The translations under genes and the position numbers were made by a program. DNA of 64,000 nt from contig NZ_AP018165.1 of assembly GCF_002356335.1 (NCBI RefSeq), forward strand, positions 2,604,001-2,668,000. Reading direction: 5' to 3'. The notes under the pieces are model-generated. The model had not been told where the DNA came from. It searched no databases and saw nothing but the letters and a program-made list of their open reading frames with translations. This DNA is from [Mycobacterium] stephanolepidis (lineage in GTDB: Bacteria; Actinomycetota; Actinomycetes; Mycobacteriales; Mycobacteriaceae). Each line of letters begins with the position of its first letter. The first letter of the stretch is position 1. Shown here one piece after another: positions 16,989 through 36,618 of the stretch.

Positions 16989-18089
16989 ATGGATGTTCAG
17001 GCGGTCCGAAGCTCGGCTGACGGCCAGTTGTCTTATGCGGTCCTGGGAGCGGATCTACGTCCGGTTGACGAGATTGATCGGTTTCTGGTCTATCTGACGA
17101 ACATTGGCCGGTCTCCGAACACGATTCGGGCGTACGCGCGTGATGTCGCGGATCTGTTCGAGTGGACGCGGTTGCAACAGCGTGATTGGCGCACTCTGGA
17201 TATCGAGGACATCGCCCATTGGGTGTCGTGGCTGCGTCTGCCGCTTGAAACCCGCACGGCTCCAGTGTCTGTCCTGCCGATGGTGAAACCGGCGGTCACC
17301 GTGCATACGTTGCGTCGGAAACTGGCATCTGTGGACACGTTCTACGTGTTTCATGCTCGCCGCGATGAGACGGTCCGAATGTGCTTGAGCCGCTGGCACC
17401 CGGGCGGCCGTAGGACATATAAGCCTTTCCTGGCGCATCTGCAGTCCGGTCGGCTGCGTAAGGAGATTCAGCTGGGCGCGGCGATTGACCCGTTCCCGCA
17501 GATCGTTGGGCGCGAAGACATGGGCCGACTGGTCGGCGCTTGCAGGCTGGTGCGTGACAGATTTCTGTTGAATCTGCTGTTTGAGACCGGTGCGCGCATT
17601 GGCGAGGCGTTGGGGATGCGACATGAAGACCTCAACATCGCCAAAGGCGAGGTTCAGATCGAGCCGCGGCTCAACGAGAACGGTGCCCGGGTGAAAAGAT
17701 GGAAACCTCGTACTGTTCCGGTGAATACCGAGCTTTTCGCCCTTTACGCAGACTACATGGACCTCGAATACGGTGCGATCGATTCAGACTATCTGTTCGT
17801 GAATCTTGTTCGTGGACAACGTGGCAGCCCGATGACCTACGGTTGTGTGCGGCAACTGGTTCTGCGTCTGCGTGAGGCTACCGGGTTGTCGTCGTTCACT
17901 CCTCATCAATTGCGTCACACGTTCGCCCACGACCTGTTGACTCGGAACACTGATTGGCATGTGGTGCAACTGTTATTGGGTCACTCCAGCGTGCAGACCA
18001 CGCTGAACATTTACGGCCATCTCACGGCCGCAGACACCCGCAAGGCGCTGATTGACGCTGGCTGGCTCGCTCAGGAAGAGGAACAGTGA
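16989..18089 (+). CDS. tnpA: Tn554-type transposase A (tyrosine recombinase)
   Basis: A 366-residue tyrosine recombinase. The N-terminal SAM-like core-binding domain spans about residues 25-130 (FLVYLTNIGRSPNTIRAYARDVADLFEW). The catalytic domain has Arg in TGARIGEALG (about 202), HQLRHTFAHDLL (about 305), GHSSVQTTLNIYGHL (His about 330, Tyr nucleophile about 342). Full-length with all catalytic residues, so probably active. The stop overlaps the tnpB start by four bases (GTGA), indicating coupled translation. Base composition looks less GC-rich than flanking core genes. Confidence 0.92.
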   Translation: MDVQAVRSSADGQLSYAVLGADLRPVDEIDRFLVYLTNIGRSPNTIRAYARDVADLFEWTRLQQRDWRTLDIEDIAHWVSWLRLPLETRTAPVSVLPMVKPAVTVHTLRRKLASVDTFYVFHARRDETVRMCLSRWHPGGRRTYKPFLAHLQSGRLRKEIQLGAAIDPFPQIVGREDMGRLVGACRLVRDRFLLNLLFETGARIGEALGMRHEDLNIAKGEVQIEPRLNENGARVKRWKPRTVPVNTELFALYADYMDLEYGAIDSDYLFVNLVRGQRGSPMTYGCVRQLVLRLREATGLSSFTPHQLRHTFAHDLLTRNTDWHVVQLLLGHSSVQTTLNIYGHLTAADTRKALIDAGWLAQEEEQ

Positions 18090-20371
18090 CCAAAAGAAGA
18101 CTGGCCGTTCGTGGGGATGGCGGTGACCCGCGACTGCTGGCGGCATTGTTTACCGCAGTGCGCCCAGAATGGCGCCACGACGTCATCACCGGCTCGCATC
18201 ATCGGCTGCTTTGCGTCGGCATGTGCCGCATCGAGAGCTGCGATCGCGAGTCCGATTACCAGTGCTTGTTGTGTCACGCGCACCATGCCCGGTGGATTCA
18301 GCAAGGCCGACAAGACATAGACACCTGGGTGCTCACACAGGGCCGGGTTCGTCGGCTGCTTCGCCGCTGCGCAGTCCAAGGGTGTGAATTCGGTGTCTAC
18401 GGACAAGGATTATGCAGCCAGCATCGACATCGCTGGGTGCAATCGGGCCGACCGTCTCCGGTCGATCAATGGGCCGCGACAGTCACCTGGCTACCTGAGG
18501 TTCGGAAAAGATGCGCCGTTGAAGACTGTGATCTGGCCGCTCAGGGGCGACAAGAGCTATGTCGGGGCCACTTCAACCGGTGGCGCGAACGTGCCCGGAT
18601 CGGCGGCCACAACGAATCAGTGGACGAGTTCGTCGTACACGCAGGATTATTCGGCCGGCCAGTTCTGCGGCTGGATGGTTTGCGCCCGCAGATGCGTCTG
18701 GAAATTCAATATGGACTGCAATGCCGGGCCGACGCCGGGCGGATCCGAACGAAACTCGCCGACCTGCAACCCTTGACGAAGTTCCTTACCGCGACAGGGG
18801 CAAATAGCCTGACAGAACGAACGCCTGAGCAGTGGCAGAACGAATTCCTCACCGCTCGTGGCGATTTTGCCGAAGTGAACCGATTCGTACGCACTGTCTC
18901 GGACCAGTTGGACATGCTCGTTAACGGCATCGGGTGGGATGTGGAGTATCCCCGCGATGTGTGGCGGCTGAACCGTCTGGGCTTTGACGCCAAGACCGAG
19001 AGCCTAAAGTTTGACCGCATTTCCCAACTGTGGCTACGTGAGCTGGCCAAGAAATGGCTCCGTAACCGTCTGACAGTCGGCCGATCCAAGCACACCACCC
19101 ACGTCAGCCTGGCTGCGATCGTGAGCCTGAGCGTCTATCTACAAGGCCATGCGTCGCCGCCAACGACACCAGCAGAGCTCACGAGAGACCATCTCGAAGG
19201 GTGGCTTGCCGAACGCAAGTTGGCGATCGAGAACTCCGAGACCCGCCGCGGCTACATCACCAACGTGTCGGTGTTCCTGCGGGACGTTCACCGCAAGGCG
19301 TGGGCTCCCGATCTGCCTGTCACCACCCAGCTGTATCCCGAGGACAACGTCGAGCGACTTCGCGACGCCGCGGCGCGGGCGATCCCTGAATACGTGATGC
19401 GGCAGCTGGAAAGCGACGAAAAACTCGGCCAAATCAGGGATCCCAACGTGCGGGCGATCGTCGAGATCATGCTGAATTGCGGCCTACGCGGTGGCGATGC
19501 CCGCCAACTCGACTTCAGCTGCGTGGTACGCGATGGCGACGACAACCCGTACCTGCGGTTCCTGAACCATAAGATGCGCCGTACCACGTTCGTGCCACTC
19601 GATGACCACACGCTCGGGGTGATCACGGCGCAACAAGGCCGGGTACTGCAGCGCTTCCCCCAGGGCTGCACGCGACTGATCCCGGCCCATCTGGCTAATC
19701 CAGATGGTTCACGGCCGTACGCTCCGGGAACCTTTGGCCACCAAATCCGGAGCTGGCTAGATAGCATTCAGCTCGTCGACGAGCGTCAGATGCCCGTCTA
19801 CGTGACTGCACATCAACTGCGGCACACTTTCGCCACCCGGCTGATTAATCGTGATGTGCCCCAACATATTGTGCAAAAGCTGCTCGATCACGAGAGCCCG
19901 GAGATGACCGCCCACTACGCCAGGCTGTGCGATGACAAACTGCGTGAGGCATGGCTCAAAGCCCGCAAGATCAACTCCGAAGGTCAGGAAGTCGAACTCG
20001 ACGAAGATCATCCGCTCGCCGGGGCAGAGTGGACCCGGGCTGGACTGGACAAGGCGAAGACCACGCTGCCAAACGGTTACTGCGGAATGCCGGCGCACAG
20101 TCCCTGTGAGCATGCTAACCCGTGTTTGACTTGCCCGTTGTTTCTCACCACACCGGATTTTTTGCCGCAGCATCAGGCCCAGCGTTCGGCGACTCTGCAG
20201 CTGATCACCAAGGCCGAAGCCGAAGGCCATCACCGGGTCGTCGAGAAGAACACACAGCTGCTGGGGAACCTCGATCGCATTATCAGCGCCTGCGAAGGGT
20301 GTCACAGCGATCAGATCGTGATCGGCGGGACAGCCCGTGGCGGACAGAGGGCACACGGCGATGCGAGCTGA
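18086..20371 (+). CDS. tnpB: Tn554-type transposase B (tyrosine recombinase with zinc repeats)
   Basis: A 761-residue recombinase, longer than Tn554 TnpB (about 630). Three repeated C-X4-C...C-X2-H modules start near residues 45, 95 and 142 (CRIESC..CLLCHAHHARW; CAVQGC..LCSQHRHRW; CAVEDC..LCRGHFNRW) and look like zinc-binding DNA contacts. The catalytic domain follows: NCGLRGGDAR (about 465), HQLRHTFATRL (about 574), LLDHESPEMTAHYARL (Tyr about 610). A second cysteine cluster (YCGMPAHSPCEHANPCLTC, about 665-683) lies near the C-terminus. GTG start at 18086. It overlaps tnpC by 11 bases. Confidence 0.9.
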   Translation: MTKRRLAVRGDGGDPRLLAALFTAVRPEWRHDVITGSHHRLLCVGMCRIESCDRESDYQCLLCHAHHARWIQQGRQDIDTWVLTQGRVRRLLRRCAVQGCEFGVYGQGLCSQHRHRWVQSGRPSPVDQWAATVTWLPEVRKRCAVEDCDLAAQGRQELCRGHFNRWRERARIGGHNESVDEFVVHAGLFGRPVLRLDGLRPQMRLEIQYGLQCRADAGRIRTKLADLQPLTKFLTATGANSLTERTPEQWQNEFLTARGDFAEVNRFVRTVSDQLDMLVNGIGWDVEYPRDVWRLNRLGFDAKTESLKFDRISQLWLRELAKKWLRNRLTVGRSKHTTHVSLAAIVSLSVYLQGHASPPTTPAELTRDHLEGWLAERKLAIENSETRRGYITNVSVFLRDVHRKAWAPDLPVTTQLYPEDNVERLRDAAARAIPEYVMRQLESDEKLGQIRDPNVRAIVEIMLNCGLRGGDARQLDFSCVVRDGDDNPYLRFLNHKMRRTTFVPLDDHTLGVITAQQGRVLQRFPQGCTRLIPAHLANPDGSRPYAPGTFGHQIRSWLDSIQLVDERQMPVYVTAHQLRHTFATRLINRDVPQHIVQKLLDHESPEMTAHYARLCDDKLREAWLKARKINSEGQEVELDEDHPLAGAEWTRAGLDKAKTTLPNGYCGMPAHSPCEHANPCLTCPLFLTTPDFLPQHQAQRSATLQLITKAEAEGHHRVVEKNTQLLGNLDRIISACEGCHSDQIVIGGTARGGQRAHGDAS

Positions 20372-20750
20372 CAACTCCCGTCACCTGATCGCGGCAGCCA
20401 AGAAGCGCAGCGAGGAATCGGTCGAGCGTGTACATGCCGCGATCCGAGAGCTGTACCGCAGCGGTGAACCCGTCAGTATCTCGAAAGTCGCTCGTCGCGC
20501 AAATGTCTCGCGAACATTCCTGCACTCGCACCCCGACTTGATGACGACTGTTCGCGATTTGCAGGCACGTAATCCCGGTCCTGAACCGATCCCCGCCCGC
20601 CAGCGAGCCAGCGAGCGATCCCTGCTCACTCGCATCGCCGCGTTGACCGACCGAAACAAGAAGCTCCGCCGTGAAAACGAAGCACTGCGCCGCAAAATCG
20701 AAGTGGCGCACGGTGATCTACGAGATCTCAAGCACCGCCCGCCAGCGTGA
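20361..20750 (+). CDS. tnpC: Tn554-type accessory transposition protein TnpC
   Basis: A 129-residue basic protein. The N-terminal half has a helix-turn-helix-like segment (EPVSISKVARRANVSRTFLHSHPDL), and the C-terminal half is a charged coiled coil (ALTDRNKKLRRENEALRRKIEVAHGDLRDL). This matches the small third protein of Tn554-type trios (DUF6262-like), which influences transposition efficiency and orientation. The ATG at 20361 lies inside the 3' end of tnpB, and a longer upstream start is less likely. Role inferred from family and position. Confidence 0.85.
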   Translation: MRADNSRHLIAAAKKRSEESVERVHAAIRELYRSGEPVSISKVARRANVSRTFLHSHPDLMTTVRDLQARNPGPEPIPARQRASERSLLTRIAALTDRNKKLRRENEALRRKIEVAHGDLRDLKHRPPA

Positions 20751-20820: not shown

Positions 20821-20846
20821 GATCTGTCAGATTAACGGTGGATCTG
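20821..20846. repeat. IS256 left terminal inverted repeat
   Basis: The left end contains CTGTC-N5-AACGGTGGATCTG. It pairs with the complement of the right end at 22168-22193, with about five mismatches in 26 bases. Confidence 0.85.
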
Positions 20847-20856
20847 CTTGGCATGG

Positions 20857-22125
20857 TTAGTTATTCGCTGCCGGGGTAATCCGGCCTTCGAACGCGATAG
20901 CGAATGCGTTCAAAGCTGGTTTCCGCCGCATGGCCCATCGTGCCCTACCTTTGCCGGTGGGGTCTAGTGATCGGGTGACCAGATACAGGCACTTGAGAGC
21001 TGCTTGCTCGGTGGGGAAATGACCGCGGGCGCGGATTGCCCGGCGGTAGCGGGCGTTGACCGATTCGATAGCGTTCGTGGAGCAGATGACTCGCCGGATC
21101 TCGGTGTCGTAGTCCAGGAACGGCACGAACTCGCTCCAGGCGTTCTCCCAGAGTCGCATGATCGCCGGATAGCGTTGGCCCCATTTGCCGCTGAACTCGA
21201 CGAAGCGTTCTTTGGCCGCGGCCTCGGTCGCTGCGGTGTAGACCGGCCGCAGATCGCGGGCCATCTCGTCCCAGTATTTGCGGGATGCGTAGCGAAAGGT
21301 ATTGCGGATCAAATGGATAACGCAGGTCTGGATCACAGCAGCGGGCCAGACAGTGTTGATCGACTCGGGTAAGCCTTTGAGTCCGTCACAGACCACGATG
21401 CACACATCGGCGGTGCCACGGTTCTTGATCTCGGTCAAGACAGCAAGCCAGTATTTGGCGCCTTCACCGCCGTCCCCGGCCCACAAGCCCAGGATGTCCC
21501 GTTCACCTGCGGTGGTGACGCCGATGGCGACATAGACCGGCCGGTTGGCGACCTGGCCGTCGCGGATCTTGACGTGGATAGCGTCGATGAACATCACCGG
21601 ATACACCGAATCTAGTGGCCGCCCTGCCCATTCGGCCATTTCTCCGACCACCTTATCGGTGATCTTCGAGATCGTGTCCTTCGAGACGTCAGCACCATAG
21701 ACCTCACCGAAATGAGCGGCGACTTCGCCGGTGGTCAGCCCTTTGGCGGTCAGGGACAAGATGATCTGATCGATCCCGGTCAGCCGGCGCTGGCGTTTCC
21801 GGACGATCTTCGGATCAAAGCGGGCGTCGGTATCGCGGGGCACCTCGATTTGCACCGGCCCGATCTCGGTCAGCACCGTTTTCTCGCGGACCCCGTTGCG
21901 GGAGTTCCCGCCATTACGGCCCGCCACCTGGTGTTTTTCATAGCCCAGGTGTTCATCCATCTCCGCTTGCAGCGCGGACTCCAACACCTGTTTGGTGAGC
22001 GCATTGAGCAACCCGTCCGGGCCGACCAGCTCCACACCCTGCTCGCCGGCTTGGGCCAGCAACTGCGCGGCCACCGCCGCGGTATCAATCTGATTCGCCA
22101 TGTCATCCATGGTTTCGGTCATCAT
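20857..22125 (-). CDS. IS256-family (Mutator-type) transposase
   Basis: A 422-residue DDE transposase. The N-terminal part has the conserved EMDEHLGYEKH...NSRNG and VPRDTDARFDPKIVRKRQRR; the middle has GLTTGEVAAHFGEVYGADVSKDTIS. The catalytic acids are in VMFIDAIHVKIRDG (first Asp), VVCDGLKGLPESI (second Asp) and, near the C-terminus, the Glu of STNAIESVNARYRRAIRARGHFPTE. The ATG at 22125 follows a GGAAGGA ribosome site; a GTG at 22176 lies inside the terminal repeat and is unlikely. The gene looks intact. Confidence 0.95.
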   Translation of the reverse strand: MMTETMDDMANQIDTAAVAAQLLAQAGEQGVELVGPDGLLNALTKQVLESALQAEMDEHLGYEKHQVAGRNGGNSRNGVREKTVLTEIGPVQIEVPRDTDARFDPKIVRKRQRRLTGIDQIILSLTAKGLTTGEVAAHFGEVYGADVSKDTISKITDKVVGEMAEWAGRPLDSVYPVMFIDAIHVKIRDGQVANRPVYVAIGVTTAGERDILGLWAGDGGEGAKYWLAVLTEIKNRGTADVCIVVCDGLKGLPESINTVWPAAVIQTCVIHLIRNTFRYASRKYWDEMARDLRPVYTAATEAAAKERFVEFSGKWGQRYPAIMRLWENAWSEFVPFLDYDTEIRRVICSTNAIESVNARYRRAIRARGHFPTEQAALKCLYLVTRSLDPTGKGRARWAMRRKPALNAFAIAFEGRITPAANN

Positions 22126-22167
22126 CAGTCCTTCCCGCCAAGCAACGCCCGGCGTGTTGAACCAAGT

Positions 22168-22193
22168 CAGATCCACCGTTTTTCAGACAGTCC
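22168..22193. repeat. IS256 right terminal inverted repeat
   Basis: Inverted partner of 20821-20846, beginning CAGATCCACCGTT on the plus strand and ending with GACAG followed by a C run. Confidence 0.85.
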
Positions 22194-23160: not shown

Positions 23161-23430
23161 GCTTGTACCACCGGCCGGACCCCCGAGTCCCCTTCGCCGA
23201 AGGAATTGAAGCACTGCGCGACCTGGTCGACTCGGGCGTGGTTCACCTGGCCGGCATCTCGAATGTGAATGTGGACCAGATCCGGCTCGCGCATTCGATC
23301 CTCGGCGATCGCCTTGTGGCCGTGCAGAATCAGTACTCCCCCGCGTTCCGCACCAGCCAGGATGAACTTCGGTACACCACCGAACTCGGATTGTCCTTCC
23401 TTCCGTACAGCCCTTTGGGAGGAATCGCGC
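23160..23430 (+). pseudogene. internal fragment of an aldo/keto reductase
   Basis: The frame continuing from the IS21 relic reads LYHRPDPRVPFAEGIEALRDLVDSGVVHLAGISNVNVDQIRLA, then VAVQNQYSPAFRTSQDELRYTTELGLSFLPYSPLGGIA. This is typical of the middle of an NADP-dependent aldo/keto reductase: HRPD at the strand-5 position, GISN, QNQYSP and the SPLGG loop. Both the N-terminal part with the catalytic Asp/Tyr/Lys/His and the C-terminal nucleotide-binding end are missing. It is a truncated passenger gene cut by the IS21 element. Confidence 0.78.
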
Positions 23431-23793
23431 GGGCCGGCGACGGATGTGGTGGAAAGGATCCAGTCGACCCATCAGCTCAGGGAATTCATCGAGGACCCGA
23501 CGACCGTCGTGGCGAGCCCCCCACAAGGTATGGGGTCCGCAAACCGACGACCTGGTGCCGCAGTTGCGCAAAAGGCTGGTCACCGAAGGGTTCTGCGCGC
23601 CCGTCGTCCGTGATGCCACCGTCGGTCCGCGGCATTCAACCCGCGGCGATGGGGCGGCGGATGTCGACGATGGCGGGTCCCCGGCCACCTGCGTCGCTTG
23701 CGATGACGTTTTACCAAATCTGCTCAACCACACCCATCGTCTATCAACCAGCGGGGACACCGCGCGGTTCTGGCGGGGATACGTGGCGGATGT
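23431..23793. other. degenerate region without recognisable gene
   Basis: About 360 bases between the reductase fragment and the LysR stop. Short open stretches in two plus-strand frames (VVERIQSTHQLREFIEDPTTVV and KVWGPQTDDLVPQLRKRL) look protein-like but change frame and have no start or recognisable family. They are most likely remains of another deleted gene. Confidence 0.5.
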
Positions 23794-24669
23794 CTAGCGG
23801 GTCGACTTGAGAAAGGCCGCGAAGCGCTCAGCGGGCGCTGACATGGCCCGCCGCTGTGGCCAGGCCAACCCGATGGGGCGCTTCGCTTGAGGGTTGGACA
23901 AGGCGACGTACACCGCCATCGGCTCACAGCGATGCGGCGGTGGGACGGGAACAACGGCGATGCCCAGACCGGCGGCGACCAGCCCTTCGACGGTGGCAAT
24001 CTCGGAAGCCTCGAATACGACCGCGGGCCTGATGTCCTCTGCGGCCCACAGAGCATCGGTGATCTGGCGTAACGCGAAATGCTCACCGAGGGCGATGAAG
24101 GATTCATCGCCGGTCTCGGCCAGGTCGACCCGGCGCCGTCTAGCCAAGCGGTGATCCTGGGGCACCACTAAGCACAATCGCTCGGTCAGAAGTTCATGCC
24201 AGCCGAAGTCGTGTCCATTGGGACGCGGGCCGGTGATGGCGAGGTCCACTTGGCCGTTGCCGAGCAGTTCGATGATCTCGTGCCCGGCCGCTTGCTGCAG
24301 CTCGAACCGAACCTGCGCGGCATCAACGCGAAACCGGCGCAGTGCATCGGGGACAAAAGAACTGGCCATCGAGTGCAGGAAAGCGAGGCGGACCGTCCCG
24401 CTGTCGGGGTCACGCAGGGCGGCGATCCGTTCCGCAGCCGCGTGGATCTCCGCCAAGCCGCGGCGCGAATGCTCGAGCATGATGCCGCCGCAATTATTGA
24501 GTCGGAGTCGGTGATTGACCCTGTCGAATAGTGGAGCACCCACCTGGCGTTCTAACCGTTTGAGCGCTCGCGACAGTGTGGGCTGCGCAATGTTGACTCG
24601 CTCGGCGGCGTCGGTCATGTGCTGGGTTTCGGCGAGGACAACAAACCACTGCAGTTCATCGACATTCAT
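23794..24669 (-). CDS. LysR-family regulator of the itaconate-type operon
   Basis: A 291-residue LysR protein. The winged helix reads VLAETQHMTDAAERVNIAQPTLSRALKRLERQVGAPLFDR (residues 10-50), followed by the effector domain starting TVRLAFLHSMASSFVPDALRRF. The ATG at 24669 gives the standard MNVDELQWFVVLAE start; an ATG at 24693 is an alternative. It is divergent from the MaoC-lyase-ACAD-CoA transferase genes. In Pseudomonas and Yersinia the itaconate cluster also has a divergent LysR activator (RipR/ItcR), so the same role is inferred: activation in response to itaconate or its CoA ester. Confidence 0.9.
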   Translation of the reverse strand: MNVDELQWFVVLAETQHMTDAAERVNIAQPTLSRALKRLERQVGAPLFDRVNHRLRLNNCGGIMLEHSRRGLAEIHAAAERIAALRDPDSGTVRLAFLHSMASSFVPDALRRFRVDAAQVRFELQQAAGHEIIELLGNGQVDLAITGPRPNGHDFGWHELLTERLCLVVPQDHRLARRRRVDLAETGDESFIALGEHFALRQITDALWAAEDIRPAVVFEASEIATVEGLVAAGLGIAVVPVPPPHRCEPMAVYVALSNPQAKRPIGLAWPQRRAMSAPAERFAAFLKSTR

Positions 24670-24853
24670 CACTGAATCATGCGCCAAATGCATGGATATT
24701 CCACCACTACGGCGCAAAAGTAATGAGCATTGGACGCTGATCTGCACGCCTCAGCCAACAACGCCGTCCCCGATACCAGTAGGGCTGCGCGTCCGCACCG
24801 AACTGCGGCTTAGGCGCAGGGTGCACGGGCGGGCGCTGGACGAACCGAAGGTA

Positions 24854-24874
24854 TTGATGCACAAATGGCATCAA
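24854..24874. promoter_or_regulatory. candidate LysR operator of the itaconate-type operon
   Basis: A perfect seven-base dyad TTGATGC-N7-GCATCAA stands about 80 bases before the first gene. Size, symmetry and position are those of a LysR recognition site. It is the strongest dyad I saw in the divergent intergenic region. Confidence 0.6.
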
Positions 24875-24880
24875 CTCGAG

Positions 24881-24903
24881 AAAATATTATCATTTTACGC
24901 ATG
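24881..24903 (+). promoter_or_regulatory. AT-rich promoter region with small dyad
   Basis: Immediately after the operator is AAAAT-ATTATC-ATTTT, a five-base dyad in unusually AT-rich DNA for this genome. It contains a TATTAT hexamer that could be a -10 element or LysR activation site. Support is by composition and position only. Confidence 0.35.
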
Positions 24904-24954
24904 GCGATTCTTTTGCTTAACTCAAAACAACTCGCCAACCACCTCAGGGAGCAC

Positions 24955-25539
24955 ATGATGGCCGACGTAGATCAGCGCAGTTCCGCCGAACCTGTCTTGG
25001 GCTGGCAGGGACGGTACTTCGAAGACTTCGTAGTTGGGGACGTGTATCAGCATCCCTTGGGCCGCACGGTCATCCAGACCGACAACATTTGGCTGACACT
25101 GCTGACGCAGAACACCGCGCCGCTGCATTTCGATACTCATTACGCCGCGCAGACCGAGTTCGGTAAACCACTGGTTGATTCCACGTTCACGCTCGCGTTG
25201 GTCACCGGGCAAAGCGTCGTTGATCTGTCTCAGCATGTGATGGCCAACCTCGGCTGGGACCGGGTGCGCATGCCCAATCCGCTGTTCGAGGGCGAGACCG
25301 TGTACTCACAGTCGGAGGTGCTGTCCGCCCGGCCGTCCAAGTCGCGCCCCAGCGTCGGCATCGTGGAGGTGCGGACGGTGGGATACACCGCGGAGGGCAA
25401 GATCGTCATCACATTCGAACGTAGTTTCCTGGTGTATCGCCGCGGACATGGACCGAAATTCGCAGCTGCTCAACCTGTTTGGGATGACCGATCCCGGGCG
25501 GCTGCCAGCGTGCCCGATCAGGGCAGTGAGGTGCGGTGA
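24955..25539 (+). CDS. ich: MaoC-family hydratase, probable itaconyl-CoA hydratase
   Basis: A 194-residue hot-dog-fold hydratase. RYFEDFVVGDVYQHPLGRTV leads into the hydratase motif NTAPLHFDTHYAAQTEFGKPLVDS, with the MaoC catalytic Asp/His pair in F-D-T-H-Y. The ATG at 24955 (followed by a second ATG) has AGGGAG six to eight bases upstream. A longer frame from 24865 begins inside the operator and is rejected. In the itaconate pathway this enzyme hydrates itaconyl-CoA (via mesaconyl-CoA) to citramalyl-CoA. The family is clear; the substrate is inferred from the neighbouring lyase and CoA-transferase genes. Confidence 0.8.
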   Translation: MMADVDQRSSAEPVLGWQGRYFEDFVVGDVYQHPLGRTVIQTDNIWLTLLTQNTAPLHFDTHYAAQTEFGKPLVDSTFTLALVTGQSVVDLSQHVMANLGWDRVRMPNPLFEGETVYSQSEVLSARPSKSRPSVGIVEVRTVGYTAEGKIVITFERSFLVYRRGHGPKFAAAQPVWDDRSRAAASVPDQGSEVR

Positions 25540-26375
25540 TGACGTCAGGTACCGCTCACCGGTCGTGGCTCTACGTCCCCGGCGATCGTGGTGACCGATT
25601 CCCGAAGGCAGCCGGCAGCGGAGCGGACGTGGTCATCTGTGACCTCGAGGACGCGGTGGCTCAGGCTGACAAGAATTCAGCGCGCGATGCAGTGGCCGAG
25701 TGGCTCCGCGACAACCGAGCCGCAGTGCGGGTGAACGGCATCGACACTCCATGGCATGCCGATGACATCGCCGCGGTCACCGACGCGCCGGGGCTGAGGG
25801 CAGTCATCGTCCCCAAGTCTGCGCACCCGGACCAGATCGCCGAAGTATCACACAGCCTTGGCGGCCATATCCCTTTGGTGCCGTTGATCGAAAGCGCTGC
25901 TGGGGTGTCGAACGCCTCAGCGATTGCAGCGAGTTCCAATGTGTCAACTCTCGCCTTTGGGAGCATCGATTTCGCCCTCGATTTGGGTATCGACGGAGTC
26001 GAGGAGGATGAGCAGGCCCTGCTGTACGCACGGTCGGTACTGGTGATCGCCTGCCGACAGACAGATATCGGGGCCCCCATCGACGGGGTGACCGTGACCC
26101 TGACCGACCCGGACGTCGTACGCCACGACGCCGAACGGGCCCGCAGGCTGGGATTCGCCGGCAAGCAGTGCATCCATCCGCGCCAGATCGCCACCGTCAA
26201 CGCGGTGTTCACGCCCTCACTCGAGGCAGTCGCTCGAGCCCGGGACATCGTCGAGGCAGCCCGGAAAGCGCACGGGTCGGCAGTCGAACTCGACGGCCAG
26301 ATGATCGACAAACCGCGCATTGACCAAGCGCACCGCATCCTTGACACCGCCGAGATTCGTGGCGCACTCAACTAA
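25539..26375 (+). CDS. ccl: HpcH/CitE-family lyase, probable citramalyl-CoA lyase
   Basis: A 278-residue TIM-barrel CoA-ester lyase. Motifs in order: SWLYVPGDRGDRFPKAAGSGADVVICDLEDAV at the N-terminus; AVRVNG with the conserved Arg; VPLIESAAG with a metal-ligand Glu; AFGSIDFALDLG with a metal-ligand Asp; GKQCIHPRQI near the C-terminus. The stop of the hydratase gene (25537-25539) overlaps the ATG at 25539 by one base, so translation is coupled; a GTG at 25536 is a second option. By context it would split citramalyl-CoA to acetyl-CoA and pyruvate. Malyl-CoA or hydroxymethylglutaryl-CoA-like substrates are alternatives. Confidence 0.8.
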   Translation: MTSGTAHRSWLYVPGDRGDRFPKAAGSGADVVICDLEDAVAQADKNSARDAVAEWLRDNRAAVRVNGIDTPWHADDIAAVTDAPGLRAVIVPKSAHPDQIAEVSHSLGGHIPLVPLIESAAGVSNASAIAASSNVSTLAFGSIDFALDLGIDGVEEDEQALLYARSVLVIACRQTDIGAPIDGVTVTLTDPDVVRHDAERARRLGFAGKQCIHPRQIATVNAVFTPSLEAVARARDIVEAARKAHGSAVELDGQMIDKPRIDQAHRILDTAEIRGALN

Positions 26376-26396
26376 TCGGATACTAGGAGGACAGTG

Positions 26397-27587
26397 ATGA
26401 CCATCGAGTTGGCGAATTCCGCCGATAGCCCCGAACACGCAAAGTTGCGCCGCGCCGTGCGGAAATTGTGCGACCAATTCGGCGAGGACTACTGGCGAGC
26501 GCGCGACCTGAACCGCGAATATCCCGAGGAATTCGTAGAAACCCTCACCAGGGCCGGCTACCTGGCTGCCCTCATACCGATCGAGTACGGCGGGCTGGGC
26601 CTGGGTATCACCGAGGGCGGGATCATCCTGGAGGAAGTCAACCGCTCGGGCGGCCACTCAGCGGCATGTCATGCGCAGATGTACACGATGGGCGCACTGC
26701 TGCGCCACGGCAGCGATGAGCAGAAGCAACGTTATCTGCCCGAGATCGCCAAAGGAAAACTACGCCTGCAAGCGTTTTCGATCACTGAACCCGAGGCGGG
26801 GTCCAACACGCCGGACATCACCACGTTCGCAGCCAAAGACGGCGACGGCTATGTGGTCACCGGCCACAAGAACTGGACCAGCCGTGTCCTGCAGTCGGAT
26901 TTGCTGATGCTGCTGGCCCGCACCGAAGAGCGGCCGGCGGACCCGGAGAAGCGCGCCCAGGGCATGAGTCTTTTCCTGGTTGATCTGCGCGAGGTCCGCG
27001 CCAACGCCCCGGACACTTTTGTTGTCGAGCCGGTGCGCACCATGTTCAACTACGCCACCAATCAGGTCTGGTACGAGCACATGCGTATTCCTGCCTCCGC
27101 CTTGATCGGAGAAGAGGGGCAGGGATTTCGCTACGTCATCGACGGTTGGAACGCCGAACGAATCCTGCTGGCTTCCGAAGCGATCGGCGATGGTTACTGG
27201 TTTCTTGACACCGCTATCAATTACGCGCGGGAACGTGAGGTGTTCGGCCGGCCGATCGGCGCCAATCAGGGCGTGCAGTTCCCGCTTGCCCGCGCCTACA
27301 CCCAAGTCCTTGCCGCTGACATGATGCGTAACCGGGCCGCTGAACTGTTCGATGCCGGACAGAAGTGCGGCGCGGAAGCCAACACAGCGAAATTCGTCGC
27401 TTCCGAGGCGAGTTGGCAGGCCGCGCAAATCTGCTTGGACACCCACGGCGGCTACGGCTTCGTTGACAAGTACAACGTGGAGCGCAAGTTCCGCGAGACC
27501 CGGGTCTACCAGGTCGCACCCGTCAACAACAACATGATTCTGGCCTTCCTCGGACAGCACGTCCTGGGCTTGCCTCGCTCCTACTGA
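26397..27587 (+). CDS. acyl-CoA dehydrogenase of the itaconate-type operon
   Basis: A flavoprotein dehydrogenase of 396 residues with the normal three-domain ACAD layout: helical N-terminal domain, LQAFSITEPEAGSNTPDITT (FAD-binding, about 122-141), and a C-terminal helical domain with DTHGGYGFVDKYNVERKFRETRVYQVAPVNNN. The usual catalytic glutamate in YEGT is replaced by AP at the aligned position, as in a subgroup of ACADs. AGGAGG lies six bases before the ATG at 26397. A comparable ACAD gene sits in the P. aeruginosa itaconate cluster. Its reaction is unknown; a branched C5-dicarboxyl-CoA substrate is a guess. Confidence 0.85.
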   Translation: MTIELANSADSPEHAKLRRAVRKLCDQFGEDYWRARDLNREYPEEFVETLTRAGYLAALIPIEYGGLGLGITEGGIILEEVNRSGGHSAACHAQMYTMGALLRHGSDEQKQRYLPEIAKGKLRLQAFSITEPEAGSNTPDITTFAAKDGDGYVVTGHKNWTSRVLQSDLLMLLARTEERPADPEKRAQGMSLFLVDLREVRANAPDTFVVEPVRTMFNYATNQVWYEHMRIPASALIGEEGQGFRYVIDGWNAERILLASEAIGDGYWFLDTAINYAREREVFGRPIGANQGVQFPLARAYTQVLAADMMRNRAAELFDAGQKCGAEANTAKFVASEASWQAAQICLDTHGGYGFVDKYNVERKFRETRVYQVAPVNNNMILAFLGQHVLGLPRSY

Positions 27588-27599
27588 CAGGGCTCAACC

Positions 27600-28874
27600 A
27601 TGAACACACCGGCACCGGTGGCGGCCGACGACGTCCTGAAATTCGTTCGCCCGCAAGCCAACATCCTGGTCCCGATCGGGTTCGGTGAACCGCCAACGCT
27701 GATCGACGTGTTGGAGGATCATGCGAGCCATCTCGACGGTGTGTGCATCCACCAGATGGATGCGTTCATCGAACGGCGCTACATCCGTGGGGAATTCGGC
27801 GATCATCTGCGGCACGTCAGCTATTACCTGGGGCCAGGGACTCGAGAGGCTTACTGGGATGGACACGTAGAACTGGTACCCAACCACTTCTCCGAAGTAC
27901 CGCTGCTGCTGCGGCAAACCGTCAAGCCCGATCTGGTCGTCGCGGCCGCCAACGGCCCTGACGAACACGGCTACTTCAGCCTGGGCACCAATGCCGACTA
28001 CGTGGCATCGTTCATCGACGAGGTGCCGTTCTTCCTCGAGGTCACCGACGCTCAGCCTTTCACATACGGCCAGAACCACATTCACATCAGCAAGGTCGCT
28101 GGTTGGACCAAGACCGATGCACCGCTGCCCACGGTCAACCGACGTCACCCCGACCCTCGCGACAGGGCGATCGCGCAGTTCATCGCCGAACGGATACCAA
28201 ACGGTGGTTGTCTGCAGGTTGGTGTCGGCGCGATTCCCGATGCTCTGCTGTCCGAGCTGGTTGACCACACCGACCTCGGCGTACACACCGAGTGCTTTTC
28301 GGATGGTCTGATGAATCTCGTCGAGTGCGGTGCGGTGACCGGAAGCCGAAAGCGCCATCACCGCAACAAGCACGTCGCGACGTTCTCGGTGGGTTCAGCC
28401 GAGCTGATGGGCTGGCTCCACCACAACGCCGCGGTCGAAATGTTGCCCGTCGAATGGACCAACGATCCGCGGGTCGTTGCCCAAGAGCCCAACTTCATCT
28501 CCATCAACGCCACCACCGAGGTCGATCTGATGGGCCAAGCCGCGAGCGAGACCATCGCCGGCCGGTACTGGTCCTCGTCCGGAGGGCAGGCCGACTTCGC
28601 TCGTGGAGCCATGTATTCGTCAGGGGGGCAAGCATTTCTGGTGTTGCACTCGACAACCAGTTCCGGTCTGGGACGGATACGCCTGCATCTGCACAGCGGC
28701 AGCGTGGTGACCACGCTGAAGAACACCATCGACAACGTTGTCACCGAATACGGGATCGCGACGCTGCGCGGTGCGTCACTGAGCGAACGAGCCCGCCGGT
28801 TGATAGCCATCGCCCATCCCAACCACCGCGATCAACTGCTGTTCGATGCCCGCAAGGCCGGTCTGCTGCACTAG
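27600..28874 (+). CDS. ict: acetyl-CoA hydrolase/transferase family, probable itaconate CoA-transferase
   Basis: A 424-residue family I CoA-transferase of the 4-hydroxybutyrate/acetate type, the family of RipA/Ict. The first half has DGVCIHQMDAFIERRYI and the second half the catalytic motif GVHTECFSDGLMNLVECGAV, where the Glu forms the thioester with CoA, followed by INATTEVDLMGQAASE and GGQADFARGA. It starts with ATG at 27600, 12 bases after the dehydrogenase gene, and ends the operon. Acid specificity is inferred from the three-gene set; acetate, propionate or 4-hydroxybutyrate transfer cannot be excluded. Confidence 0.82.
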   Translation: MNTPAPVAADDVLKFVRPQANILVPIGFGEPPTLIDVLEDHASHLDGVCIHQMDAFIERRYIRGEFGDHLRHVSYYLGPGTREAYWDGHVELVPNHFSEVPLLLRQTVKPDLVVAAANGPDEHGYFSLGTNADYVASFIDEVPFFLEVTDAQPFTYGQNHIHISKVAGWTKTDAPLPTVNRRHPDPRDRAIAQFIAERIPNGGCLQVGVGAIPDALLSELVDHTDLGVHTECFSDGLMNLVECGAVTGSRKRHHRNKHVATFSVGSAELMGWLHHNAAVEMLPVEWTNDPRVVAQEPNFISINATTEVDLMGQAASETIAGRYWSSSGGQADFARGAMYSSGGQAFLVLHSTTSSGLGRIRLHLHSGSVVTTLKNTIDNVVTEYGIATLRGASLSERARRLIAIAHPNHRDQLLFDARKAGLLH

Positions 28875-28897
28875 CCGCCCTCGAGTAAGGAGCCACG

Positions 28898-29160
28898 ATG
28901 GCACGCGCCATCGCCGATCAACTCATCGACGTCCTGATCTCCCCGGCGTCCGCCATGAAGAGGCCGCGGCGTTCGCCGTCGCCGATGCCGAATTGCACAA
29001 CCGCCTTGCGGTGTGCGCCGGGTCCTGAAGCCCCGGCAATTTGCACCTTATCAATCAATAGCCTCTGCGACGCCCATCGGTCCGGTGCACCGGTGCTGGC
29101 CATCGCCTCCCACATCCCCAGCACCGGGATCACCTATCGGTGCCCGACGTAGTCATCGCA
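28898..29160 (+). pseudogene. remnant of pyruvate oxidase/acetolactate synthase-like enzyme
   Basis: Starts MARAIADQLIDVLIS, as ThDP-dependent pyruvate dehydrogenases (quinone, PoxB type) do. Then in other frames come HEEAAAFAVADAELHNRLAVCAGS, SPGNLHLIN and AHRSGAPVLAIASHIPSTGIT. These are successive conserved segments of the N-terminal domain, separated by frame changes and a deletion near 28945. About 500 residues of the normal enzyme are missing. It lies 23 bases after the CoA-transferase gene and is clearly non-functional. Confidence 0.8.
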
Positions 29161-29289
29161 CTCTGCGCAGTTCTGGGCCTCAACTGCTGCCAGCAATCCT
29201 CATCTTCGCGAAATGATCGGTCTGGTCGCAGCTCACCCACTTGTGAGATGGTCACGAGATTGCGTTTGCGAAACAGGCTAGGAGAACCA
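29161..29289. other. short non-coding stretch before the carbonic anhydrase gene
   Basis: No gene recognised. The carbonic anhydrase promoter should lie here; the region GATTGCGTTTGCG near 29258 and an AGGAGA ribosome site at 29280-29285 precede the ATG. Confidence 0.3.
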
Positions 29290-30000: not shown

Positions 30001-30082
30001 GCGCCAGAACCCCCAAAGGCCCACGGTCGACCAACTCGCAGTCACAATACCTGATCGCGATTTAGTCCCGAAAGTTGGCGGA

Positions 30083-31345: not shown

Positions 31346-31366
31346 GGAACATCCTCTCGCGCGCGA

Positions 31367-32326
31367 CTACGAGCTGAGCTTGAGCAGTTGCTCGGCAGCC
31401 AGTGCAGGGGTCAAGGTTCCCTCGCGCACCTGCTGTTCGATATCCGCCCGTGCGGCTTTCACGTCCGGCGCGTTGAGCACCCGATCCAGCACCGCATCAC
31501 GCACCATCGCCCACATCCAGTCGACTTGCTGACGACGGCGTTTGGCCCCGAACTCCCCCGCCTCCGTCAACACCTCGCGGTGCCGCAACACGGTGTCCCA
31601 CATCTCGGACACCCCGCTGTTCTCCAATGCGCTCATGGTGAGAACCGGTGGGCGCCAGAGGGTGTCATGTGGATAGATCAGACGTAGGGCGCCCGACAAC
31701 TCCCGCGCGGCCTTCAGTGCCTCGATGGCATGGGCACCATCGGCCTTGTTCACCACCACGATATCGGCGAGCTCCAGCACGCCCTTTTTGATGCCCTGCA
31801 GCTGATCTCCGGTACGTGCCAGCGTCAGGAACACAAAGGTGTCAACCATGTTCGCGACGGTGACCTCGGACTGCCCGACGCCGACGGTCTCGATGAGGAT
31901 GACATCGAACCCGGCCACCTCCAGCAGCACCACCGTCTCACGGGTCGCCTTCGCCACCCCACCCAGCGTGCCTGAGGTGGGCGAGGGCCGGATGTACGCA
32001 TCGGGATGTACTGAGAGCCGCCCCATCCGGGTCTTGTCGCCGAGGATCGATCCTCCGGTGCGAGTGGACGACGGATCGACCGCCAGCACCGCGACCCGGT
32101 GCCCCTGCTCGATGAGATACATGCCGAGGGCCTCGATGGTGGTCGACTTGCCCACACCGGGCACACCGGTGATGCCAACTCGCAGCGCTTCTCCCGCATC
32201 GGGCGAGATATCCAGCAGTAACTGCTGAGCCTGCGCTCGGTGATCCGGGCGCGTCGACTCCACCAAAGTGATGGCTTTCGCGAGCGCGGAACGATCACCC
32301 GAACGGATCGCGTTGCTCAGGTCCAT
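31367..32326 (-). CDS. meaB: methylmalonyl-CoA mutase-associated GTPase MeaB
   Basis: A 319-residue G3E-family GTPase that protects and reloads adenosylcobalamin-dependent methylmalonyl-CoA mutase. It shows the P-loop GVPGVGKSTTIEALG (about 53-67), GGSILGDKTRM, ETVGVGQSE (switch region), and VNKADG (base recognition). The ATG directly follows the mutB stop with no gap. In M. tuberculosis a mazEF pair separates mutB and meaB; here it is absent. Confidence 0.96.
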   Translation of the reverse strand: MDLSNAIRSGDRSALAKAITLVESTRPDHRAQAQQLLLDISPDAGEALRVGITGVPGVGKSTTIEALGMYLIEQGHRVAVLAVDPSSTRTGGSILGDKTRMGRLSVHPDAYIRPSPTSGTLGGVAKATRETVVLLEVAGFDVILIETVGVGQSEVTVANMVDTFVFLTLARTGDQLQGIKKGVLELADIVVVNKADGAHAIEALKAARELSGALRLIYPHDTLWRPPVLTMSALENSGVSEMWDTVLRHREVLTEAGEFGAKRRRQQVDWMWAMVRDAVLDRVLNAPDVKAARADIEQQVREGTLTPALAAEQLLKLSS

Positions 32327-34606
<2,280 letters not shown>

Positions 34607-34607
34607 G

Positions 34608-36437
34608 TCACGCCCCCAACTTGTTCAGTATGGCCGAAAGCGCTTCGACAGCATTGATTTTCATGGTCAGGTAGCCATCGGGTCGTGATGTCTGCGCGAC
34701 CTCCGCGACGGACTTCTCGGGTCCCGCGAGATACACGTCGGTGATCCCCGCCGCTTTGGCCGCGTCGACAACCGGACCTGCTTCAGCGGCGTATCGGGCA
34801 TCGGTTCCACAGATCACGGCGATGCGCGCTCCCGCATCCGCCACCGCATCGGCAACGGATCCGGCGTCGAGTACGCCGGGATTGACGACCTCGATACCGC
34901 CTGAGGCCAACAGGTTCGAGGCGAATGTGGTGCGCACGTTGTGCTCGGCCAGCGGACCCAGCGGTATCAGTAGTGCGGACGGACGCGCACCCGATGCGGC
35001 CAGCGCTGCATCGGAGCGATCACGCAGGGCCTCGAATTCGGCGGCGTATCGGTAACCCGCCGTCGCATGTGGTGGCAGCGGAGCTTCCGCCAGGTTCGGG
35101 AATTCGTTCACCCCGGTCACCGAGGTACGCCGATGGGCGATGTCGTCGGTACGCTCGGCGCGCGTCGCGGCGATGCGTTCCCGAATCAGTTCGGCGGCCG
35201 CCTGGAATCCTCCCGCACCCTCGATCTCGGTGAACAGCGACCATGCCTGCTGAGCAAGGGTTTCCGTGAGGTCCTCGATGTACCACGAACCGCCGCCGGG
35301 GTCGAGCACCCGGCCGACATGGGACTCCTCGATGAGCAGGAGCTGCGTGTTTCGGGCGATTCGCGCGGAGAACGCCGGGGATACCGAATCCAGTCCACCG
35401 GCAATCGCGTCATCGAATTGACGCACCCGCACACTGTCCGCGCCACCGACTCCGGCGCCGAAGGCGGCCAACGTGGTGCGCAGCATGTTCACCCACGGAT
35501 CACGCTGGGCCATCATCGGCTCCGAGGTCACCGCATGCATGAGAGCTCCCCCGGCCTCGGGCGCGCCGGCGACCTCGGCCACCCGCGCCCAGAGCACTCT
35601 GGCGGCACGGAATTTGGCGATCGACAGGAACTGATCATCGGTCGCGGCGAAACGGAAACTGATCTGCCGCAATGCTTCCGCGATTCCCAGGCCCGCGTTC
35701 TGCAATAGCCTCAGGTAGGCGACCCCGGCCGCTATCGCGACCGCAAGTTCCTGGCTGTCGCTGGCGCCGAGTTCGTGGGCGATCGTGCCGTCTGCGGTGA
35801 TGGCGCGGATCTGCTCGGTCCGCGCGACCGCACGTTCGGCCAACGCCACCGCGTCATCGATCGCTATGCCAGAACGGCCGGTGAAGGCATCCCCGAGCGG
35901 ATCGGCGCCGAGGTCCACGACAACACCGGCGGCATCGCCCTCGTAGGCATCCAGCACCGTGAAGATCGCCTCGGCCACCTCGATCAACCCGGCACCGGCC
36001 TCCACTTGGATCGGAGCCAAATCGAGGTAGACGTCCTGCAGCGCACGCCCCACCGACTCGGGTGCAAGACCGGCTAGGACGATGGCGCTGGTGCCCTGCC
36101 CCAGAGCGTCCAGAATGGCCTCGTTCACGAGGGCCGCATCGGTCCCAGCGGCACCGTCGAAACGCTCGGCGACCTTCCACCCACTGTTCACATCGCGCCG
36201 AGGATCGCCACCACGGACAAACGGCCATTGTCCGGGCAGCGACGGCTCGGGAAGCTCATCCAACGCCGTATACAACGGACGGATCGCGATCCCGTCGTAT
36301 GTCGGCGAGTCGAGCAGTCGCTCGGGGTCGGCGGGCAGATCCTCGACAGCCTTGCGCGTCGACTTAGCCAACACCCCGGCGACGTTCTTCTGCCACCGTG
36401 CGAAGTCATGCCTAATCTCGGGTACCTCAACAGTCAC
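34608..36437 (-). CDS. mutA: methylmalonyl-CoA mutase small (beta) subunit
   Basis: A 609-residue partner of MutB with the same fold but without the DxHxxG cobalamin motif, as expected for the non-catalytic subunit. Conserved barrel segments include [61 protein letters not shown] and a C-terminal Rossmann-like region ([16 protein letters not shown]). The start is a GTG at 36437, seven bases after AGGGAG; a longer frame from 36503 lacks such a site. mutA-mutB-meaB form an operon. Confidence 0.95.
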
Positions 36438-36618
36438 GAAACTGCTCCCTGCTGCTCGTCGTCGAGCGACATATATGGCACTCCATGCCGAAATGCCTAT
36501 CACACTTAGTCATCAGGCTAAATGACGCCATCGACTACTGCCCAGTACGGGGGCACGGCCATCGCGACACCCGTGTCCTGTCCCCTTCGTTCATCCGGGC
36601 TCCGTAGGCTTGACCACC

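What the first reader, a model, noticed from the sequence alone, without database searches (positions are those of the whole stretch)
23794..28874. Itaconate-type degradation operon on a mycobacterial mobile island
LysR (divergent), MaoC hydratase, CitE-like lyase, acyl-CoA dehydrogenase and family I CoA-transferase reproduce the content and divergent-regulator layout of the ict-ich-ccl (ripABC) cluster, including the extra ACAD gene known from P. aeruginosa. Itaconate is made by macrophages and inhibits isocitrate lyase and B12-dependent mutase in mycobacteria. M. tuberculosis degrades it through the separate Rv2498c route, so a dedicated acquired operon would be new for this group. The enzyme families are read directly; the substrate is inferred.
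Basis: partly seen in the sequence, partly recalled or inferred. Interest (0 to 1): 0.82.

Follow-up and report, generated by a model that had tools for sequence, protein, structure and literature searches.

The report
Actinobacterial itaconate/methylsuccinate operon in a mycobacterium
A five-gene set on a mycobacterial chromosome most likely lets the bacterium eat itaconate and its relative methylsuccinate; it belongs to an operon type found in various soil actinobacteria that mixes parts of the two known bacterial versions of this pathway.

Summary
In detail: an intact, tightly spaced MaoC hydratase / CitE-like lyase / acyl-CoA dehydrogenase / family-I CoA-transferase operon with a divergent LysR lies at 23794-28874, on a mycobacterial chromosome between ileS and meaB-mutB-mutA. 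The substrate class (C5-branched dicarboxylates, itaconate included) is well supported. The dehydrogenase falls in a 100/100 clade with the PA0879-type methylsuccinyl-C4-CoA dehydrogenase; the hydratase falls with RipB/Ich; an Embleya cluster with the same regulator, hydratase and lyase types carries a 58% relative of the P. aeruginosa itaconate CoA-transferase; pyruvate oxidase follows 6 of 15 related operons, as expected if pyruvate is the product. It is a hybrid third variant of a known pathway. The CoA-transferase substrate is the untested weak link.

The parts
23794..24669 (-). LysR-type regulator, divergent (ORF open from 24747; start more likely 24669)
   Evidence: PF00126 and PF03466; 47.7% identical to the LysR of the Sciscionella operon, 25% to the LysR of the P. 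aeruginosa cluster in L082
24854..24874 (.). candidate LysR box TTGATGC-N7-GCATCAA (contains T-N11-A) in the divergent intergenic stretch
   Evidence: weak: 73 of 1000 shuffles hold an equally good palindrome, and no perfect 7-nt arms were found in the 53-225 nt examined in 5 relatives
24955..25539 (+). MaoC-family hydratase of RipB/Ich type; predicted itaconyl-CoA isomerase / mesaconyl-C4-CoA hydratase
   Evidence: best NCBIfam model RipB_Ich 202.5 bits, cut-off 340; 57.5% over 153 aa to Paraburkholderia RipB; on the RipB side of a 97/96 branch
25536..26375 (+). CitE-like lyase; predicted (S)-citramalyl-CoA lyase giving acetyl-CoA and pyruvate
   Evidence: best NCBIfam model RipC_Ccl 176 bits, cut-off 375; 39% to the lyase of L082, taken as PA0883; VRVNG, LIESAAG, FGSIDF and DLEDA motifs; placement unresolved
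26394..27587 (+). acyl-CoA dehydrogenase of PA0879 type; predicted methylsuccinyl-C4-CoA dehydrogenase (Mcd)
   Evidence: 55% over 383 aa to the ACAD of L082, taken as PA0879; 100/100 clade of 12; clade signature NAER plus Y[QE][VI]AP
27600..28874 (+). family-I CoA-transferase of a mostly actinobacterial lineage; predicted itaconate / (R)-methylsuccinate CoA-transferase
   Evidence: PF13336 and PF02550; His229 and Glu231 invariant in 23 aligned sequences, window included; lineage apart from the RipA type and from a Cetobacterium AbfT-like enzyme
16989..20750 (+). neighbouring Tn554-like recombinase trio: 16989-18089, 18086-20371, 20337-20750
   Evidence: PF00589 twice and PF19776 DUF6262; that this trio marks Tn554-like elements is recalled
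20824..22190 (-). IS256-family element with 23-nt terminal inverted repeats (87% complementary)
   Evidence: NF033543, 377 bits against cut-off 150; repeats 20824-20846 / 22168-22190
31367..36503 (-). meaB, mutB, mutA (methylmalonyl-CoA mutase and its chaperone), 2.5 kb beyond the operon

Best explanation
It is a LysR-controlled catabolic operon for branched C5-dicarboxylates. The CoA-transferase loads itaconate or (R)-methylsuccinate onto CoA at C4, from succinyl-CoA or acetyl-CoA (inferred). The ACAD oxidises methylsuccinyl-C4-CoA to mesaconyl-C4-CoA (inferred from clade membership with biochemically characterised enzymes). The MaoC enzyme isomerises and hydrates itaconyl-CoA, or hydrates mesaconyl-C4-CoA, to (S)-citramalyl-CoA. 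The CitE-like enzyme splits that into acetyl-CoA and pyruvate. Itaconate needs three of the enzymes; methylsuccinate needs all four. It is a third, hybrid assembly: hydratase of the Yersinia type, dehydrogenase of the Pseudomonas type, and a CoA-transferase of its own lineage.
For: Operon integrity. ACAD in a 100/100 clade of 12 rows with the P. aeruginosa (L082), Burkholderia and Variovorax cluster enzymes; 12 of 12 carry NAER and Y[QE][VI]AP, against 0 of the 11 other rows for Y[QE][VI]AP. PA0879 and its C. necator counterpart are shown (RS)-methylsuccinyl-C4-CoA dehydrogenases (PMC12290011). Hydratase on the RipB side (34 of 44 rows) of a 97/96 branch, the Rv2499c-like rows on the other, 57.5% to a RipB that passes the NCBIfam cut-off at 356 bits. 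Swap: Embleya L075 has the same LysR, hydratase and lyase types beside a CoA-transferase 58% identical to that of L082 (PA0882), where 12 other CaiB proteins give 29-44%. RipB-type hydratase, PA0879-type ACAD and PA0882-type CoA-transferase recur together in Rhodococcus, Thermus and Deinococcus. PoxB in 6 of 15 related operons (3 of 3 tested pass an equivalog cut-off) and in the Paraburkholderia ripB cluster fits pyruvate as product. JGI names 21 of the 120 listed hydratase homologues 'itaconyl-CoA hydratase'.
Against: The CoA-transferase is outside the RipA lineage and unrelated to PA0882. Of 61 loci with it, 46 show no hydratase on the fetched stretch (10 of these begin less than 2 kb before the gene and cannot be judged), operon and solo members alternate on the tree (8 changes), and a 4-hydroxybutyrate CoA-transferase (3eh7, 314 bits) scores above 3qli (237; that 3qli is RipA is recalled). 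RipB_Ich and RipC_Ccl cut-offs are missed; hydratases in non-itaconate-like settings score the same on RipB_Ich (Polaromonas L077 200.8), so that gene alone does not fix the substrate. The lyase is unresolved. No match to a TRAP large permease, MmgE/PrpD or PoxB in the window. No activity or growth data exist here for this host.
Confidence: 0.72

Rival explanations
1. Methylsuccinate/mesaconate/citramalate operon that does not take itaconate: same enzymes, but the CoA-transferase rejects itaconate, so the operon feeds soil-derived methylsuccinate into the lyase.
For: The ACAD type serves methylsuccinate only (PMC12290011); the CoA-transferase lineage is not Ict; P. aeruginosa-type five-gene clusters typify saprophytes. 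Mcd-type ACADs (78%) are listed for Planotetraspora thailandica and P. phitsanulokensis (P0287, P0288), whose operon loci L009 and L007 lack the gene, so the ACAD can be encoded elsewhere in the genome.
Against: 11 of 15 related operons have no such ACAD on the fetched stretch, though at least the two species named have one elsewhere; the Embleya cluster uses a PA0882-type enzyme, and P. aeruginosa Ict accepts both acids.
Confidence: 0.14
2. Other acid: the CoA-transferase is a 4-hydroxybutyrate-, propionate- or acetate-type enzyme and the operon degrades a different acyl-CoA through hydration and retro-aldol cleavage.
For: CoA-transferase closest to a 4-hydroxybutyrate CoA-transferase among solved structures; solo relatives; Polaromonas hydratase in an unrelated setting.
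Against: PA0879-type ACAD and the Embleya swap; PoxB fits pyruvate.
Confidence: 0.08
3. A copy of the mycobacterial Rv2498c-type cluster: (R)-HMG-CoA lyase for leucine breakdown with itaconate as a side line.
For: Same family content (ACAD, MaoC, CitE) as the Rv2500c-Rv2498c-like trio at L068 (the Rv names are inferred from gene order and recall); the lyase tree does not reject a union with the lyases of that type (p-AU 0.068).
Against: Hydratase and ACAD lie apart from that trio; no carboxylase gene in the operon; the lyase scores 154 bits with 9nzb/8khl (acyl-CoA lyase beta chain, taken as PA0883) and 106 bits with 6aq4, which is Rv2498c.
Confidence: 0.04
4. Non-functional remnant carried by neighbouring mobile DNA.
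For: Fragmentary neighbours at 22.4-23.8 kb.
Against: Five open, tightly spaced genes with conserved motifs and coding-type third-position GC.
Confidence: 0.02

Closest known systems
P. aeruginosa / C. necator itaconate-methylsuccinate cluster (ich, mcd, msi, ict, ccl; PA0878-PA0883)
   Same: Mcd of the same type (55%, 100/100 clade); CitE-like lyase 39%; divergent LysR
   Different: Ict is family III (CaiB/BaiF) and Ich a different MaoC protein; no Msi or TRAP large-permease match in the window and no VOC gene inside the operon; LysR only 25% identical
Yersinia-type ict-ich-ccl (ripABC), here represented by Paraburkholderia caribensis L074
   Same: RipB-type hydratase (57.5%); family-I CoA-transferase; CitE-like lyase; in L074 poxB follows, as in several actinobacterial operons
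   Different: CoA-transferase 34.6% and in another lineage; RipB and RipC equivalog cut-offs missed; the Yersinia type has no Mcd (PMC12290011)
M. tuberculosis Rv2498c itaconate/leucine route (PMC6689899)
   Same: CitE-like (S)-citramalyl-CoA lyase logic
   Different: Hydratase and ACAD apart on the trees; single LysR-controlled operon; no carboxylase gene
Actinobacterial LysR-MaoC-CitE-CoAT(-Mcd)(-PoxB) operons (Streptomyces, Sciscionella, Nonomuraea, Amycolatopsis, Planotetraspora, Actinoallomurus)
   Same: Same gene types; hydratase 62-79%, lyase 46-57%, CoA-transferase 61-73%, Mcd 78-80%
   Different: Gene order: the window has Mcd before the CoA-transferase, Nonomuraea after it; several others have PoxB, lack Mcd or show no CitE on the stretch

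Membership tests
Yersinia-type ict-ich-ccl (ripABC) | CoA-transferase of the RipA/Ict lineage | tested here: not met
   L074 RipA type (586 bits to 3qli) lies outside the 66-row clade (SH-aLRT 99, quick method) that holds the window; 34.6% identity
Yersinia-type ict-ich-ccl (ripABC) | RipB/Ich equivalog NF038241 (cut-off 340 bits) | tested here: not met
   202.5 bits; yet on the RipB side of a 97/96 branch. No match in 11 actinobacterial genomes searched passes the cut-off either, so this is a trait of the lineage
Yersinia-type ict-ich-ccl (ripABC) | RipC/Ccl equivalog NF038242 (cut-off 375 bits) | tested here: not met
   176 bits; the lyase of the Paraburkholderia ripB cluster misses it too, at 290.5
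Yersinia-type ict-ich-ccl (ripABC) | three genes, no Mcd | tested here: not met
   Mcd-type ACAD present
P. aeruginosa-type itaconate/methylsuccinate cluster | family-III Ict (PA0882) | tested here: not met
   no CaiB match in the window at E <= 1e-12; CoA-transferase unrelated
P. aeruginosa-type itaconate/methylsuccinate cluster | PA0878-type hydratase | tested here: not met
   no full-length similarity (22.6% over 84 aa); no match to it in the window
P. aeruginosa-type itaconate/methylsuccinate cluster | PA0879-type methylsuccinyl-C4-CoA dehydrogenase | tested here: met
P. aeruginosa-type itaconate/methylsuccinate cluster | MmgE/PrpD methylsuccinate isomerase (PA0881) | tested here: not met
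   none in the window at E <= 1e-12
P. aeruginosa-type itaconate/methylsuccinate cluster | PA0883-type lyase | tested here: inconclusive
   39% identity; union with the L082 and L083 lyases not rejected, p-AU 0.15
Actinobacterial C5-dicarboxylate operon type described here | RipB-type MaoC next to the CoA-transferase of this lineage, usually with CitE (11 of 15) | tested here: met
Any itaconate-degrading system | measured itaconate CoA-transferase, hydratase and lyase activity, or growth on itaconate | not testable with these tools
   needs enzymes or cultures
Rv2498c cluster | Rv2499c-type hydratase and FadE19-type ACAD | tested here: not met
   apart on the trees; which rows are Rv2499c- and FadE19-like is inferred from gene order and recall
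Integrative mobile island | operon enclosed by ends, att repeats or a tRNA site | tested here: not met
   no tRNA in the window; no direct repeat of 18 nt or more enclosing the operon in 13400-31400; recombinases lie on one side only

The most novel reading that the evidence does not exclude
Actinobacteria, some mycobacteria among them, use a third, independently assembled itaconate/methylsuccinate pathway, with a CoA-transferase recruited from a lineage of its own and swappable for a PA0882-type enzyme; in this mycobacterium it removes itaconyl-CoA, the inactivator of the methylmalonyl-CoA mutase encoded 2.5 kb away.
Probability: 0.45. Interest if true: 0.68.

Novelty: new variant of a known kind. 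Interest (0 to 1): 0.5.

Why it matters
The literature read here describes two convergent variants of bacterial itaconate degradation, characterised in proteobacteria (PMC12290011), and one study reports that none of its 5 M. avium complex and 6 M. abscessus complex isolates used itaconate (PMC11086914). A hybrid operon in a mycobacterium and in various soil actinobacteria would add a third variant. It predicts which strains can use itaconate and methylsuccinate, and it suggests the CoA-transferase slot is exchangeable. It also moves the likely setting from the macrophage towards soil and water, where fungi make itaconate and methylsuccinate may form. All of this can be settled with four purified enzymes.

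Tried and rejected
Rejected: membership in ripABC or in the P. aeruginosa cluster as such (see the membership test); an Rv2498c-type cluster (trees of hydratase and ACAD); functional coupling to mutAB by position (0 of 15 related operon loci show a MutB match on the fetched stretch, so the neighbourhood looks local). Led nowhere: lyase phylogeny (window + operon lyases p-AU 0.32, window + L082/L083 0.15, window + Rv2498c-like 0.068); LysR box conservation; a survey of the genus through the genome search (searched one genome and found nothing, which shows nothing). Literature: five of nine searches returned no paper, one search returned two, one already known; brought the papers cited (listings of 19 of 20, 15 of 24 and 10 of 29 papers).

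Rows dropped: one search left out duplicate loci, the partial second MaoC of L001 and hits of 75 bits or less (so L024); one search left out duplicate loci, ACAD hits under 300 aa or at 70 bits or less and lyases under 200 aa or at 70 bits or less; one search left out duplicates and CoA-transferases under 330 aa (L054, L059) and used the quick method; its 8 changes were counted on loci and window only. One search also left out L084, L102 and L111. One search listed CaiB proteins over 250 aa only. Treekit warned of long branches in the trees (ACAD).


Full report
OBSERVATION. Pfam and NCBIfam agree with the families named. The four enzyme genes are spaced at -4, 18 and 12 nt, so one transcript is likely (inference). 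The hydratase more likely starts at 24955: AGGGAG stands just upstream, and the earlier ATG at 24865 lies within a 7-7-7 palindrome of LysR-box form. Palindromes this good occur in 73 of 1000 shuffles and none with perfect 7-nt arms was found in the 53-225 nt examined in five relatives, so the box is a weak suggestion.

SETTING. The window is chromosomal; the homologue searches that returned the window's own proteins give a 4,994,485-base contig. dnaE, ileS, meaB-mutB-mutA, inhA and acnA lie around the operon. MutB matches 6oxc at 1428 bits against 1096 for the next sequence. The operon lies between ileS and meaB. On the ileS side are a tyrosine-recombinase trio with a DUF6262 protein, of Tn554 type (recalled), and an IS256 copy with 23-nt ends. 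Nothing encloses the operon, so mobility is possible but not shown. GC is 62.1% for the operon, 63.9-65.1% for ileS and meaB-mutAB, 60.2% for the recombinase trio.

NAMES. The P. aeruginosa genes were read from a plasmid record (L082). PA numbers are given to them by gene order and product, which fit the description of PA0878-PA0886 in PMC9875883; no PAO1 sequence was compared.

RELATIVES. A genome scan with an alignment of 23 CoA-transferases gave 61 loci. Fifteen also carry the RipB-type hydratase (L024 by a partial match): L001, L002, L005-L010, L012-L014, L016, L019, L024, L059. Of these 15, 11 show CitE, 4 the same ACAD type, 6 PoxB and 6 LysR, five of them divergent. The other 46 show no hydratase (L061 has lyase pieces by tblastn); 10 of the 46 begin less than 2 kb before the CoA-transferase and cannot be judged, L054 among them. 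In the homologue lists (best 120 of 7843, 7827 and 7999), hydratase, ACAD and CoA-transferase relatives at 83-85% share one 18,293-base contig size, which suggests a sister operon (an inference from equal contig lengths and counts). Named mycobacterial homologues: CoA-transferase 82% in M. saskatchewanense and 68% in M. brumae, hydratase 72% in M. wolinskyi; their gene neighbourhoods could not be read.

WHAT THE GENES ARE. ACAD: 55% identical to the L082 enzyme (PA0879) over 383 aa, against 30% for a Variovorax ACAD from another setting (L081), in a 100/100 clade of 12 with the Pseudomonas, Burkholderia, Variovorax, Thermus, Deinococcus, Rubrobacter and Rhodococcus cluster enzymes. All 12 carry NAER and, near the C-terminus, Y[QE][VI]AP; 8 of the 11 other rows have GEGT or YEGT there. 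Of 120 listed homologues 119 have NAER and 99 the second motif in the stricter form searched. That the NAER glutamate corresponds to the helix-G base of isovaleryl-CoA dehydrogenase, whose substrate is also branched at the beta carbon, is recalled and would suit methylsuccinyl-C4-CoA. PA0879 and the C. necator enzyme convert both methylsuccinyl-C4-CoA enantiomers to mesaconyl-C4-CoA (PMC12290011: outline and abstract; the Introduction, the two results sections on the dehydrogenase and the isomerase's distribution, and the first of two parts of the Discussion).

Hydratase: on one side of a 97/96 branch with Paraburkholderia RipB (356 bits, above the NCBIfam cut-off), in a 99/91 group of 23 actinobacterial rows, the Rv2499c-like rows on the other side. 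This group is broader than itaconate clusters: Polaromonas L077 has such a hydratase in another setting. Lyase: motifs intact but placement unresolved. CoA-transferase: family I, with the invariant His229 and Glu231, in a mostly actinobacterial lineage separate from the RipA type and from a Cetobacterium enzyme with 4-hydroxybutyrate genes next to it. Operon and solo members alternate (8 changes), so the lineage does not by itself reveal the substrate.

THE SWAP. The strongest argument for substrate class is exchange. Embleya L075 has the operon-type LysR (283 bits), hydratase (305 bits) and, on the opposite strand, lyase (223 bits) and a family-III CoA-transferase 58.1% identical to that of L082 (PA0882). 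The 19 other CaiB proteins over 250 aa fall into two sets, 50-72% (7: L073, L075, L078-L080, L083, L084) and 29-44% (12). In Rhodococcus, Thermus and Deinococcus the RipB-type hydratase travels with PA0882-type CoA-transferase and PA0879-type ACAD, in Rubrobacter with a PA0881-type isomerase (61.9%) and the ACAD. So hydratase, ACAD and lyase keep the company of two different CoA-transferases, one of which belongs to the known itaconate type. PoxB follows 6 of the 15 actinobacterial operons and the ripB cluster in Paraburkholderia; pyruvate is the expected lyase product.

MECHANISM. Shown: gene content, clades, motifs, gene company. Inferred: CoA loading of itaconate or methylsuccinate; dehydrogenation of methylsuccinyl-C4-CoA; isomerisation and hydration to (S)-citramalyl-CoA; cleavage to acetyl-CoA and pyruvate; LysR control. 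Untested: any activity, uptake, induction. Two facts leave room for a methylsuccinate-only operon: the ACAD type serves methylsuccinate, and some species without the ACAD in the operon have one elsewhere (P0287, P0288).

COMPARISON. Gonner et al. describe two convergent variants: the Yersinia type with three itaconate-only genes and the Pseudomonas type, with five genes in saprophytes (PMC12290011). The words Mycobacteri, Actinobacteri and Actinomycet do not occur in that main text. This operon combines a Yersinia-type hydratase with a Pseudomonas-type dehydrogenase and a CoA-transferase of neither, so it works like both and is a member of neither. De Witt et al. (PMC9875883, passages) showed by gene deletions that PA0879 is needed for methylsuccinate and not for itaconate; one passage names a three-gene operon in M. 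tuberculosis. M. tuberculosis uses Rv2498c (PMC6689899, passages). A 2024 study reports no itaconate use by its M. avium complex and M. abscessus complex isolates (PMC11086914, passages); a 2021 M. [quoted passage not shown] avium (PMC8546851, passages). A review on cobamides describes itaconyl-CoA inactivation of the mutase (PMC12713380, passages). In the listings, and in the passages read, I saw no paper on an actinobacterial operon of this make-up; the listings are capped, only passages were read, and most subscription journals are not held.

VERDICT. Real and probably an itaconate/methylsuccinate operon, but a member of an actinobacterial type found in several families, not shown to be a mycobacterial novelty, and not demonstrably mobile. 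Its lasting interest is the hybrid make-up, the open question of the CoA-transferase and, less firmly, its neighbourhood with the enzyme that itaconyl-CoA inactivates.

Noticed in passing
window 41634-41802 (-): M-box magnesium riboswitch (145.8 bits, gathering score 44) upstream of a CBS-domain MgtE-like ORF (39864-41168) and an NRAMP-like ORF (38146-39936); the two protein names are recalled from the sequence, and NCBIfam gave no match at 1e-30.
   Followed up: partly
window 13539-15759: MFS transporter (-) divergent from a second LysR regulator that resembles the operon's LysR (212 bits, against 65 for the LysR of the P. aeruginosa cluster). A possible uptake pair for the operon's substrate, 9 kb away; untested.
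   Followed up: partly
window 22400-23810: Fragments that look like an IS21-type transposase (by eye; no Pfam match for two ORFs tried) and an aldo/keto reductase fragment between the IS256 copy and the LysR gene. Described only.
   Followed up: no
window 31367-36503: meaB-mutB-mutA lie 2.5 kb from the operon, and itaconyl-CoA is reported to inactivate this mutase (PMC12713380). No MutB match occurs on the fetched stretch of any of the 15 related operon loci, so the closeness may be chance.
   Followed up: partly
L068 from 65 on (L102 is the same place): The genome of a Mycobacterium MAG with a 76% partial CoA-transferase match (L054) also holds an ACAD-MaoC-CitE trio resembling Rv2500c-Rv2498c on another contig, so both routes may coexist in one genome.
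   Followed up: partly
L082 (NZ_CP131792.1): An 847-kb Pseudomonas aeruginosa plasmid record, typed as conjugative, carries an itaconate/methylsuccinate-type cluster with its TRAP transporter genes.
   Followed up: no
P0351 and P0357: ACADs of 68-70% identity are listed for Virgibacillus and Oceanobacillus, so this dehydrogenase type reaches beyond proteobacteria and actinobacteria; their gene neighbours were not read.
   Followed up: no
window 29140-30000: Beta-carbonic anhydrase-family ORF directly downstream of the operon, on the same strand, about 265 nt away; no link to the pathway was seen.
   Followed up: no
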